A DNA stretch of 64,000 nt from contig JARGPU010000003.1 of the NCBI GenBank assembly GCA_029210325.1, positions 1 through 64,000 of the forward strand. The letters are read 5' to 3'. Numbering within the stretch: the first letter of the stretch is position 1; every line of letters begins with the position of its first letter. The translations under genes and the position numbers were made by a program. Origin of the DNA: Alcanivoracaceae bacterium (lineage in GTDB: Bacteria; Pseudomonadota; Gammaproteobacteria; Pseudomonadales; Alcanivoracaceae). Under the pieces are notes generated by a model, which was not told the origin of the DNA, made no database searches, and was given only the letters and a program-made list of their open reading frames with translations. Shown here piece after piece: positions 20,895 to 34,535 of the stretch.

Positions 20895-23276
20895 ATGGAA
20901 AACCATTTTGAAGTCGTGATTGTTGGTTCTGGGCCGGCAGGTTTGAGTGCTGCTGGCCGAGCCGCAGAGCTGGATTTATCCCATGTGTTGCTGGAAAGCA
21001 CTTCCCATCTGGCTAACACCATTCAGCGTTATCAGAAGGGCAAGCACGTTATGGCGGAACCTGGCTTTCTGCCATTGCGTAGTAGCCTGCCATTCGATGC
21101 TGGCTCCCGTGAGGATATTCTGGCTGCCTGGCAGCAAAACGCGGGAACCCTGTCCATCAATGTGGACTGGCAGGCGGATGTGGTCGCCATTAGCGGGCAG
21201 CGTGGTGATTTCACTTTGCAAACCCGCGCTGGTAAAACCATACGAGCCGCTAACGTAGTGCTAGCCATTGGCTTGCAGGGCAACCCACGTAAGCTCGGCG
21301 TTCCGGGTGAGGATCAGCCATTTGTCCAGTATCAGCTGGATGATCCAGATGAATATCAGAATGAATCTATCATGGTGGTCGGTGCTGGTGACTCTGCCAT
21401 TGAGAATGCGCTGGCCTTGTCACGGAATAATCAGATTTCCCTGATTAACCGTCGAGATGAATTTGCCCGCGCCAAAGAGGGCAACCTGAAATTGCTTGAG
21501 GATGCCATTGAGCGCGGCCGTATCAGGGTGTTCTTCAATAGTAGTTTACGGCAGATCGAAACGTTGACCGGTGGCGACCATCTGGCTCAGGTGACATTGA
21601 CCACCGGCGAAGGTGAAGTACAGGTGCCGGTGGATCGAATCATTGCCAGGCTCGGTGCTATTCCACCACGGGACTTTGTCGAGTCCTGTGGCATTAAATT
21701 CCCCAATGATGCGATTAATGCAGTGCCCGAACTGACTCACCAATATGAGTCAAATGTGCCCGGTTTGTATGTTATCGGTGCCTTGGCGGGATATCCGCTA
21801 ATCAAGCAGGCCATGAATCAGGGCTATGAGGTGATCGAGCATATTCTCGGTCACGATATCAAGCCGGTGGATAATGATCTTCTGGCGGAAAAATTTTCTG
21901 GCTTGCCGTTTAACCTTGATGTCGAGCAGACCCTTGAGCTCATTCAGAATAATGTGTTGTGTTTTGGTCCGGTCAATAGCCTGCGTTTTCGTGAGCTGAT
22001 TTTGGAAAGTGAGATGCACACGCCGGCAGAAGGCGAGGTGATCTTCTCCCGTAACGACTACACCAACTCATTCTATTCGGTAGTTGAAGGGTCGGTAGAA
22101 GTTGTTATTGATGAAACTACCGGCAAGCGGGTGCGTATCGGGGAGGGGCACTTCTTCGGTGAGATGGGGTTGATTTCAGGTCGCCGCCGTAATGCAACTG
22201 TCTATGCAGGGCGTCACTGTGTACTGGTGGAAACTCCACGGCGTAACATGCTGCGATTACTCGCATCAGCAGATGAAGTGCGCCGGCGTATTGATCAGGT
22301 ATTTATCCTGCGGGCTATCCACTCCCAGTTTGCTCCCAACTCCAGTCTTGAGGACTTGTCTGATCTGGTGAACTCGGCAGAGTTGCGTCAGTACGCTCCC
22401 GGCGAGGTGCTGTTTGCAGAGGGAGAGAGCGGTGATGAGCTGCATCTGGTGCGGCGTGGCTCACTAACGGTGTCCCGCTATCTGCATGGCCGCGAAGTGG
22501 TGCTGTCCTATGTGCCGGCAGGCAAGTATGTGGGCGAAATGGGTCTGCTCGGTAATACCCGGCGTACTGCCTCGGTGCGAGCCGTGGTGCCGACTGAAAC
22601 AGTAGTGATGAAGAGCGGGCCATTTCTTGACCTGCTGGATAGAGATCCGCAGCTGAAAGAGCAGGTACAGCTACAGCTGCAGGCGCGTCTGCGCGCCAAT
22701 GCTTCCATGGAGGCCTCTGAGGAAGGTGGTGAGCTACTCTCGTTCCTGATGCGTCAAGGCTTGGGTGAAGCTACGGATGTGTTGTTGATTGACGAATCCC
22801 TGTGTGTACGTTGTGATAACTGCGAAACAGCCTGTGCTTCAACTCACGGTGGCACCTCGCGCCTGAACCGGGAAGCAGGGCCAAGTTATGCGTCTATTCA
22901 TGTGCCCACATCCTGTCGCCACTGTGAACATCCACATTGTATGAAGGACTGTCCGCCTGATGCGATCAGTCGTAATGCCAGCGGCGAAGTGGTCATTGCT
23001 GATAATTGTATCGGTTGTGGTAACTGTGAAAGCAATTGTCCTTACGGGGTTATCCAGATGGCTCAGGTGGGCGGTTCTCAGCCTGGCCTGTGGAGCCGTG
23101 TTCTGTTCGGTGCCGAGCATAAAAAAGTCAAGGACAAGGATGCGCCCAAGCGGGCAGTGAAGTGCGATATGTGTACCAGCCTGAAGGGTGGACCTGCCTG
23201 TGTTCGAGCCTGTCCCACAGGCGCTGCAGTGCGCATCAGTCCGGAACAGTTTATTGAGTTGGTGCAGGAGAACTGA
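20895..23276 (+). CDS. FAD-dependent pyridine nucleotide oxidoreductase with two cyclic-nucleotide-binding domains and C-terminal four-[4Fe-4S] ferredoxin module
   Basis: VVIVGSGPAGLSAAGRA (FAD), MVVGAGDSAIENAL (second nucleotide site); two cNMP domains (GEGHFFGEMGLISGRRRNATVYA and GKYVGEMGLLGNTRRTASVRA); four cysteine clusters (CVRCDNCETAC, CRHCEHPHCMKDCP, CIGCGNCESNCP, CDMC...CVRACP). Start set at MENHFEVV. Confidence 0.9.
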   Translation: MENHFEVVIVGSGPAGLSAAGRAAELDLSHVLLESTSHLANTIQRYQKGKHVMAEPGFLPLRSSLPFDAGSREDILAAWQQNAGTLSINVDWQADVVAISGQRGDFTLQTRAGKTIRAANVVLAIGLQGNPRKLGVPGEDQPFVQYQLDDPDEYQNESIMVVGAGDSAIENALALSRNNQISLINRRDEFARAKEGNLKLLEDAIERGRIRVFFNSSLRQIETLTGGDHLAQVTLTTGEGEVQVPVDRIIARLGAIPPRDFVESCGIKFPNDAINAVPELTHQYESNVPGLYVIGALAGYPLIKQAMNQGYEVIEHILGHDIKPVDNDLLAEKFSGLPFNLDVEQTLELIQNNVLCFGPVNSLRFRELILESEMHTPAEGEVIFSRNDYTNSFYSVVEGSVEVVIDETTGKRVRIGEGHFFGEMGLISGRRRNATVYAGRHCVLVETPRRNMLRLLASADEVRRRIDQVFILRAIHSQFAPNSSLEDLSDLVNSAELRQYAPGEVLFAEGESGDELHLVRRGSLTVSRYLHGREVVLSYVPAGKYVGEMGLLGNTRRTASVRAVVPTETVVMKSGPFLDLLDRDPQLKEQVQLQLQARLRANASMEASEEGGELLSFLMRQGLGEATDVLLIDESLCVRCDNCETACASTHGGTSRLNREAGPSYASIHVPTSCRHCEHPHCMKDCPPDAISRNASGEVVIADNCIGCGNCESNCPYGVIQMAQVGGSQPGLWSRVLFGAEHKKVKDKDAPKRAVKCDMCTSLKGGPACVRACPTGAAVRISPEQFIELVQEN

Positions 23277-23278
23277 TT

Positions 23279-33282: not shown

Positions 33283-34535
33283 ACAGAGTATGGCTGACTG
33301 GTTTGCTGGTATTGAGTGGCGCCCTGTGGGCCGCAGATAAACATATGGGCGTGGCCACCTGCGCCTCGTCGGTGTGCCATGGAAGCAGTTCGGAGCGCAG
33401 CGAAGCCAATATTCTGCACAGTGAGTATGTGATCTGGGGGCAGCGCGATCCCCATGCGGGGGCTTACAAAACATTGCTCAACCAACAATCGCAAAGGATT
33501 GCCAAGAATCTTGGTGTCGGTCCGGCTCATGAAGCCAAGGCATGTCTTGTCTGTCACAGCGACTACGTTCCGCAAGCAGAGCGTGGACCTCGTTTCCAGC
33601 TAACTGATGGTGTCGGCTGTGAGTCCTGCCATGGTGGCTCTGAGCGCTGGCTGTCGTCGCACACTGAGCGGGGTGTAACCCATGAAGATAATCTGCAACG
33701 CGGCCTGACTCTTTTGCAGGACGCGGATGTTCGTGCAGAGATGTGTGCCAGCTGCCATGTTGGTGACAGTGAACGGATGGCGGACCATGACATTATGGGC
33801 GCGGGTCACCCGCGACTACAGTTTGAGCTGGCGACTTATAGCCGTCTGTGGCCATCGCACTACCGCGATAATGAAGCCTACAGGGAAAGAAAACATTCTC
33901 CGGATTCACTGGAGTTATGGACGGCAGGCCAGCTTCGCAGCGCCCGTAATATTCTGCAGGGTCTGGGCAGTAAGCGATTTATGGCGACACCGATGTGGCC
34001 AGAGTTGGCCTTTTTTGATTGCCATTCCTGTCATGCGCCGATGGATTCAGAAAAATGGCAGCCAAGGGCAGCGGGCAAGCTGCCCCCTGGTGCAGTGCGA
34101 TTAAATGATAGTTCACTTTTGATGGTTGGCTGGTTGCTGGATGCTTCGGATTCAGCCGCCGCACGACAGTGGCGTGCGGGCATTGCCAGTTTGCACGAAG
34201 CCAGCCAGCAGGGTAGCGCAGCGGTTAAGAAAGCAAGCGGCAGGTTGCTTGATCAATTGGATGACTTCTCTTCCCGTTTGAAAGAACAGCCGCAGTTGCG
34301 CCCACAACCGGCAGTGTTATTCAAACGTATTAGCGAAGATGCCTTAGGGGCCACTTTCAATGACTACATGACTGCAGAGCAAGTGCTGATGGTGCTGGCT
34401 TTGTTGGCAGAGAAGCAGGATGCAGATCCAGCCATGCTGGATGGCCTGTATAAGAGTATGGCGGATCAGCATCACTTCCGTTCAGTGGAGTTTCTGCGTG
34501 CTCTGCAGCAGTACCAGAAGAACCTTGCCAAGTAA
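33279..34535 (+). CDS. Multiheme c-type cytochrome (cytochrome c554-like)
   Basis: Signal peptide; CASSVCH (CX4CH), CLVCH, CESCH, CASCH, CHSCH; 4-bp overlap with the previous gene. Confidence 0.88.
   Translation: MNRVWLTGLLVLSGALWAADKHMGVATCASSVCHGSSSERSEANILHSEYVIWGQRDPHAGAYKTLLNQQSQRIAKNLGVGPAHEAKACLVCHSDYVPQAERGPRFQLTDGVGCESCHGGSERWLSSHTERGVTHEDNLQRGLTLLQDADVRAEMCASCHVGDSERMADHDIMGAGHPRLQFELATYSRLWPSHYRDNEAYRERKHSPDSLELWTAGQLRSARNILQGLGSKRFMATPMWPELAFFDCHSCHAPMDSEKWQPRAAGKLPPGAVRLNDSSLLMVGWLLDASDSAAARQWRAGIASLHEASQQGSAAVKKASGRLLDQLDDFSSRLKEQPQLRPQPAVLFKRISEDALGATFNDYMTAEQVLMVLALLAEKQDADPAMLDGLYKSMADQHHFRSVEFLRALQQYQKNLAK

What the first reader, a model, noticed from the sequence alone, without database searches (positions are those of the whole stretch)
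20895..34535. Seven-gene operon: candidate signal-gated trans-envelope electron-transfer system
Seven genes on one strand are packed with 2-6 bp gaps or 4-bp ATGA-type overlaps and closed by a strong terminator at 34544-34578. In order: flavin/cNMP/[4Fe-4S] oxidoreductase, HX13H membrane protein, FHA-decaheme cytochrome, HbpS-like lipoprotein, beta-barrel-like protein, decaheme-LVIVD cytochrome, multiheme cytochrome. Together they carry 24 CxxCH plus one CX4CH motif. The order matches a path from cytoplasm to inner membrane to periplasm to outer membrane. The parts resemble porin-cytochrome conduits such as MtrCAB in logic, but the regulatory domains (cNMP, FHA) and the HbpS-like lipoprotein are not part of that archetype. 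Function is inferred.
Basis: partly seen in the sequence, partly recalled or inferred. Interest (0 to 1): 0.93.

Follow-up and report, generated by a model that had tools for sequence, protein, structure and literature searches.

The report
NADPH-fed trans-envelope cytochrome conduit operon
Seven neighbouring genes encode what looks like a complete electrical wire from the inside of a bacterium to its outer surface; the same seven genes recur in many aerobic marine and soil bacteria, yet I found no paper describing the set, so it is probably a widespread and uncharacterised relative of the known metal-respiration conduits.

Summary
Seven co-oriented genes (20895-34535, +) sit 2-6 bp apart or overlap by 4 bp and end at a strong hairpin terminator. 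They carry 24 CxxCH plus one CX4CH. The genome is Alcanivorax-like.

The set is a conserved system. Of 54 sufficiently long named loci from alpha-, beta- and gammaproteobacteria, 33 have g1-g7 in the same order and strand; nearly all others keep g1-g6 or the halves g1-g3 and g4-g6. Heme counts are essentially invariant.

The closest published system is the predicted 'PCC4' conduit (He et al. 2017). I located a PCC4-type cluster (L148). It shares the inner-membrane protein signature and the cNMP/[4Fe-4S] protein, but has a different porin, flavoprotein and cytochrome set. This operon is therefore a sister type, not PCC4 or Mtr.

Best explanation: NAD(P)H -> flavin/[4Fe-4S] (g1) -> di-heme b (g2) -> periplasmic decaheme (g3) -> g6/g7 with an ~18-strand AlgE-like barrel (g5) -> outside. 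Direction and acceptor are inferred. g1 and g2 are fused in some genomes.

'Signal-gated' is half right: both cNMP sites keep their phosphate-binding Arg, but the g3 FHA lacks the phosphothreonine triad in 56 of 58 sequences.

The parts
20688..20703 (+). weak CRP-like site (TGCGT-N6-TCACA), possible cAMP-CRP control
   Evidence: 2 mismatches of 10; 12 of 55 upstream regions have <=2 mismatches vs 4.05 in mononucleotide shuffles. Weak, not a claim.
20895..23276 (+). g1: cytoplasmic NAD(P)H-binding thioredoxin-reductase-like flavoprotein without redox-disulfide, two cNMP-binding domains, four [4Fe-4S] clusters (16 Cys)
   Evidence: Pfam; 16 cluster Cys conserved, no conserved Cys in the flavin domain; phosphate-binding Arg R432 98% and R557 100%
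23279..24169 (+). g2: inner-membrane di-heme-b protein of the PCC3/PCC4 IMP type
   Evidence: two invariant WX3HX13H motifs (W78/H82/H96, W270/H274/H288) and SGxxG at 119; fused to g1 in L142 and L143
24174..25838 (+). g3: cytoplasmic degenerate FHA domain, one TM helix (143-161), periplasmic decaheme cytochrome c
25835..27781 (+). g4: secreted protein, probable lipoprotein (LGSC), HbpS-like repeats; missing in one Nitrosomonas locus, so not core
27778..29511 (+). g5: outer-membrane beta-barrel, about 18 strands, AlgE-like fold, C-terminal ...LILTY
   Evidence: AlphaFold2 pLDDT 74.8, pTM 0.73; Foldseek to AlgE 3rbh E=5e-16
29518..33282 (+). g6: secreted decaheme cytochrome with C-terminal LVIVD beta-propeller
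33279..34535 (+). g7: secreted pentaheme cytochrome of the c554 type (4 CxxCH + 1 CX4CH)
34544..34578 (+). intrinsic terminator hairpin, overlapping the 3' end of the convergent YgiQ-like gene (34560-37040, -)

Best explanation
The operon builds a porin-cytochrome-type conduit that carries electrons across the whole envelope. Predicted path: NAD(P)H reduces the FAD of g1 in the cytoplasm; electrons pass through its four [4Fe-4S] clusters to the two b-hemes of g2 in the inner membrane, then to the membrane-anchored periplasmic decaheme g3. From there they reach the outer-membrane assembly of barrel g5, decaheme-propeller g6 and pentaheme g7, and finally an acceptor at or outside the outer membrane. 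Cyclic nucleotide binding by g1 probably sets the activity. Shown here: the parts, their conservation, the g1-g2 fusion, the predicted barrel fold. Inferred: the outward direction (downhill from NAD(P)H, and the only cytoplasmic partner is a pyridine-nucleotide flavoprotein), the complex itself, the acceptor (Fe(III)/Mn(IV)/humics/electrode or O2), and the gating.
For: Synteny g1-g7 in the same order and strand in 33 of 54 long named loci, most others keeping g1-g6 or the halves g1-g3 and g4-g6. g2 co-occurs with g6: 11 of 12 g6-bearing genomes in a 399-genome sample, Fisher p about 2e-17 (relatedness not corrected). g1 and g2 are one polypeptide in two genomes. g2 has the di-heme-b motifs. 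Heme counts are essentially invariant. g5 is a predicted barrel. No NapC/CymA quinol dehydrogenase family in this genome, so g1-g2 is the likely entry. In the PCC4-type cluster L148 the cNMP/Fe-S protein is accompanied by a different NAD(P)H flavoprotein (FAD_binding_6/NAD_binding_1/Fer2), so pyridine-nucleotide input recurs by a different module.
Against: No functional data. An 18-strand barrel is narrower than the 26 strands known for MtrB (background knowledge), so an MtrA-style decaheme plug inside it is doubtful. Some genomes (G412, G524) keep g1-g3 with no g6 found, so g1-g3 can serve other partners. The heme part of the g6 model is low confidence, so contacts with g5 are untested. Hosts are mostly not known metal respirers.
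Confidence: 0.58

Rival explanations
1. Same conduit, opposite direction: electrons from an extracellular donor such as Fe(II) or Mn(II) enter and go to the quinone pool through g2, as He et al. proposed for PCC3/PCC4; g1 would then be a regulator or a side exit.
For: The PCC3/PCC4 model published for the same inner-membrane protein type runs inward to quinone (PMC5566968). Some hosts come from biocathodes or possibly manganese-associated sources by record title (L021, L065).
Against: g1 carries an intact nucleotide-binding flavin domain and four conserved Fe-S clusters and is fused to g2 in two genomes. Pushing electrons from Fe(II) to NAD(P)+ is uphill. Most hosts are heterotrophs.
Confidence: 0.2
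2. Not an extracellular conduit: g1-g3 deliver electrons to a periplasmic multiheme reductase (g6/g7), and the AlgE-like barrel is a substrate or product channel.
For: The barrel resembles the alginate exporter and OprD/Occ-type substrate channels. g6 and g7 have ordinary signal peptides and no lipobox. g1-g3 occur alone with a DUF1924 monoheme cytochrome in L142/L143.
Against: g5 and g6 are neighbours in essentially all loci that reach both and the PCC4-type cluster also pairs such cytochromes with a barrel-like protein. No known catalytic heme family was hit convincingly by g6 or g7.
Confidence: 0.17
3. One reading: phosphorylation gating through the FHA domain of g3 together with cNMP gating.
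For: FHA domain present. A PP2C phosphatase sits directly after g7 in 20 of 42 testable loci and an FHA protein within 1.7 kb in 23.
Against: The R, S/T, H phosphothreonine triad of the g3 FHA is present in only 2 of 58 sequences and absent in the window (Ala in place of Ser). The window has no PP2C or FHA gene next to the operon.
Confidence: 0.05

Closest known systems
PCC4 putative porin-cytochrome complex, subgroup II (He et al. 2017, PMC5566968); example found here: L148
   Same: IMP with two WX3HX13H and SGxxG; cNMP+[4Fe-4S] protein immediately upstream of it (g1 profile E=4e-61), decaheme immediately downstream, a c554-type cytochrome, a barrel-like protein
   Different: PCC4 has a separate FAD_binding_6/Fer2 flavoprotein, cytochromes of 4, 5 and 10 hemes and a decaheme without FHA. 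Here a thioredoxin-reductase-type flavin domain is fused to g1, cytochromes have 10, 10 and 5 hemes, one has a beta-propeller, there is an HbpS-like protein, and the porin shows no detectable homology
PCC3 (He et al. 2017); PCC3-like locus L147
   Same: inner-membrane protein family (g2 profile E=6e-16)
   Different: PCC3-like cytochromes have 24 and 34 hemes; no g1-, g4- or g6-like gene in L147
MtrCAB / MtoAB / PioAB
   Same: logic: inner-membrane entry, periplasmic and outer-membrane multiheme cytochromes, barrel
   Different: No MtrB-family hit for g5; about 18 instead of 26 strands; g3 and g7 far below the DmsE/MtrA-family cut-off (19-20 vs 192 bits) and g6 no hit; no NapC/CymA family in the genome
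Geobacter Ext selenite/tellurite operon cytochrome ExtM (NF040943)
   Same: local multiheme similarity to g6
   Different: 48.7 bits against a cut-off of 800; not a member

Membership tests
PCC4 (He et al. 2017) | IMP with SGxxG and two WX3HX13H motifs | tested here: met
   positions 78, 119 and 270 of g2; same pattern in the PCC4-like comparators
PCC4 (He et al. 2017) | IMP with five transmembrane helices | tested here: inconclusive
   hydropathy scan finds four in g2; the first WX3HX13H segment (78-96) falls below threshold here but is called in L146
PCC4 (He et al. 2017) | pfam13247 Fe-S gene upstream of the IMP gene (subgroup II) | tested here: met
   g1 Fer4_11 E=2e-11, directly upstream of g2
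PCC4 (He et al. 2017) | three multiheme cytochromes with 4, 5 and 10 hemes | tested here: not met
   10, 10 and 5 hemes, conserved in relatives
PCC4 (He et al. 2017) | homologous porin | tested here: not met
   g5 profile vs the 459-aa barrel-like protein of L148: hhalign probability 0.1%; single comparator sequence
MtrCAB/MtoAB/PioAB | MtrB/PioB-family barrel of 26 strands | tested here: not met
   no Pfam hit; about 18 strands, AlgE-like
MtrCAB/MtoAB/PioAB | MtrA/DmsE-family decaheme | tested here: not met
   TIGR03508 19.2 bits (g3) and 19.7 bits (g7) vs cut-off 192.2; no hit for g6
Porin-cytochrome conduit (by function) | barrel gene beside multiheme cytochrome genes | tested here: met
   g5 is an outer-membrane-type barrel by prediction, adjacent to g6 in essentially all loci that reach both
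Porin-cytochrome conduit (by function) | electron transfer across the outer membrane | not testable with these tools
   needs biochemistry
Canonical FHA phosphothreonine reader | Arg, Ser/Thr and His binding residues | tested here: not met
   all three in 2 of 58 g3 sequences, not in the window
Thioredoxin reductase | CxxC redox disulfide | tested here: not met
   only one Cys (C265) in residues 1-330 of g1, not conserved
cNMP-binding domain | phosphate-binding cassette Gly-Glu and Arg | tested here: met
   G422 100%, E423 98%, R432 98%; G547 100%, E548 71% (25% Q), R557 100%

The most novel reading that the evidence does not exclude
A cyclic-nucleotide-controlled, NADPH-fed (not quinol-fed) trans-envelope electron exporter, widespread in bacteria regarded as ordinary aerobic heterotrophs and transferable by conjugative plasmid, which would make extracellular electron disposal a common accessory trait of oxic marine and soil bacteria.
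Probability: 0.3. Interest if true: 0.85.

Novelty: new variant of a known kind. Interest (0 to 1): 0.64.

Why it matters
The system is common (at least 7,123 homologs of g6 at E<=1e-10 in a capped search; 3-4% of sampled gammaproteobacterial and proteobacterial genomes), essentially invariant in heme number, annotated piecemeal as 'hypothetical' and 'multiheme cytochrome', and lies in bacteria not known for metal respiration. If it works as inferred, it couples the cytoplasmic NAD(P)H pool directly to the cell exterior under second-messenger control. That is testable in culturable isolates such as Marinobacter, Limnobacter, Steroidobacter or Pseudoteredinibacter.

Tried and rejected
MtrCAB/MtoAB membership. 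PCC4 membership in the strict sense. Ext selenite/tellurite operon (far below cut-off). Thioredoxin reductase reading of g1 (no CxxC). FHA phospho-gating. Regulatory motifs: FNR, Fur and OxyR consensus not enriched upstream of g1; CRP-like only weakly. Phage origin: no match in phage records. Literature: ten searches gave no paper on this gene set; LVIVD plus cytochrome returned only unrelated papers. Nitrosomonas and Thioclava EET papers did not mention such a cluster in the passages searched. The g6 heme domain could not be modelled with confidence without hemes. Comparison of g3 and g7 with PCC4 cytochromes by E-value alone was not trusted: the 34-heme protein of L147 scores almost as well against g3, so only gene order and g1/g2 similarity are used there.
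Full report
Observation. The window lies in a 3.03-Mb, 23-contig genome whose nearest named relative is Alcanivorax sp. 1008 (97% identity in g6, same seven genes). The seven ORFs, their spacing and the heme motifs are as reported, with minor corrections: only one of the three 4-bp overlaps is ATGA, the others are TTGA and GTGA; g2 has two HX13H motifs. The terminator hairpin folds at -23.3 kcal/mol, z -6.0, and overlaps the end of the convergent YgiQ-like gene.

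Conservation. Of 54 loci with enough sequence on both sides, 33 carry g1-g7 in identical order and strand; 9 lack g7 nearby; 3 have g7 inverted; 3 (Limnobacter) have g1 moved behind g7; one Nitrosomonas lacks g4; the rest are rearrangements, two of them with only g4-g6 locally. Heme counts are 10, 10 and 4+1 in 60/61, 81/81 and 59/59 sequences. A g6 tree places members of the Alcanivoracaceae on well-separated branches, and in the window's own family g6 was found in only 4 of the roughly 36 other genomes examined, so the operon is a patchy accessory trait. A complete copy lies on a conjugative megaplasmid of Sphingobium herbicidovorans.

Two modules. g1-g2-g3 and g4-g5-g6 behave as units. In several alphaproteobacterial genomes they are apart or convergent. 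In genomes G412 and G524 g1 and g2 are one 1,118-1,123 aa polypeptide followed by g3, with no g6 found in the genome and a DUF1924 monoheme cytochrome just upstream. The fusion is the best evidence that g1 and g2 are electron-transfer partners. In a 399-genome sample g2 accompanies g6 in 11 of 12 cases.

Parts. g1 combines a thioredoxin-reductase-like flavin domain without a CxxC pair, with conserved nucleotide-binding glycines and an NRRDEFAR-type motif that suggests NADPH (inference), two cNMP-binding domains that keep the phosphate-binding Arg, and 16 conserved Cys for four [4Fe-4S] clusters. g2 has invariant WX3HX13H twice and SGxxG, the published signature of the PCC3/PCC4 inner-membrane protein, interpreted there as a di-heme b protein. 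g3 has a cytoplasmic FHA domain, one TM helix and ten hemes; its FHA lacks the Arg-Ser/Thr-His triad in 56 of 58 sequences. g4 is an HbpS-like protein with a probable lipobox. g5 is predicted as an about 18-strand barrel with an AlgE-like fold. g6 has ten hemes and a beta-propeller. g7 is a c554-like pentaheme.

Comparison with PCC4. He et al. 2017 (PMC5566968) describe PCC4 as a porin, three multiheme cytochromes with 4, 5 and 10 hemes, the IMP, and in subgroup II a pfam13247 protein upstream of the IMP. Searching the phylum with the g2 profile I found a cluster that fits this (L148): pentaheme, 459-aa secreted barrel-like protein ending in Phe, FAD_binding_6/NAD_binding_1/Fer2 flavoprotein, tetraheme c554, cNMP+Fe-S protein, IMP, decaheme; partial or related clusters are L146 and L149-L151. 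That L148 is a PCC4 is my assignment from the published description, because the paper's gene IDs could not be checked. g1 and g2 are clear homologs of its cNMP/Fe-S protein and IMP (E=4e-61, 3e-17), but the porin is not detectably related, the flavoprotein is of another family and the cytochrome set differs. The window operon is thus a sister conduit that shares the inner-membrane entry with PCC4 and has its own flavin input and outer-membrane part.

Mechanism. The simplest reading is outward flow from NAD(P)H through g1, g2 and g3 to the outer-membrane assembly. The genome has no NapC/CymA family protein, so no other known quinol entry to such a chain was found. Direction, acceptor and complex formation are inferred. 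Gating by cyclic nucleotides is plausible from the conserved binding residues but untested; gating by phosphothreonine through the g3 FHA is unlikely. Notably, in 20 of 42 loci a PP2C phosphatase follows g7 directly and an FHA protein lies within 1.7 kb in 23; the adjacent FHA proteins keep the canonical motif in 19 of 21 cases, and in those lineages the g3 FHA is even more degenerate (16 of 17 without the Arg, against 3 of 16 elsewhere; Fisher p = 1e-5, relatedness not corrected). Some relatives may therefore have a dedicated phospho-switch in trans, which the window's operon lacks.

Verdict. Real, conserved, seemingly undescribed as a set in the open literature held here (subscription journals and preprints are not covered), and a new variant of the porin-cytochrome conduit kind. 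Interest is moderate to high because of its breadth and its location in aerobic heterotrophs; the function remains to be shown.

Noticed in passing
L034:14962-17024, L029:15081-17047 and similar loci: PP2C phosphatase gene directly after g7 in 20 of 42 testable loci, and a canonical FHA protein within 1.7 kb in 23 of 42; absent beside the window's operon.
   Followed up: partly
L142:5850-9206, L143:3052-6423: g1 and g2 fused into one polypeptide; module g1-g3 stands alone, preceded by a DUF1924 (SHP-like) monoheme cytochrome; no g6 found in those genomes.
   Followed up: partly
L176 (Sphingobium herbicidovorans plasmid pMSHV): Complete system in two convergent halves on a conjugative megaplasmid, flanked by two-partner secretion genes and metallophosphoesterases.
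   Followed up: no
L147:2844-8909: PCC3-like locus with 34- and 24-heme cytochromes and a g2-related inner-membrane protein.
   Followed up: no
L040:5730-6176 and eight other loci: Small secreted protein of unknown family inserted before g4 in a subset of (mostly alphaproteobacterial) copies.
   Followed up: no
L152:1123-3654: Na+/H+ exchanger with a C-terminal cNMP-binding domain directly downstream of g6 in one genome.
   Followed up: no
window 13878-19348 (-): DnaE2-ImuB-ImuA-like mutagenesis cassette just upstream of the operon region (by sequence reading, not tested).
   Followed up: no
window 48296-49456 (+): AlkB-like alkane monooxygenase, fitting an Alcanivorax-type alkane degrader (by sequence reading).
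   Followed up: no
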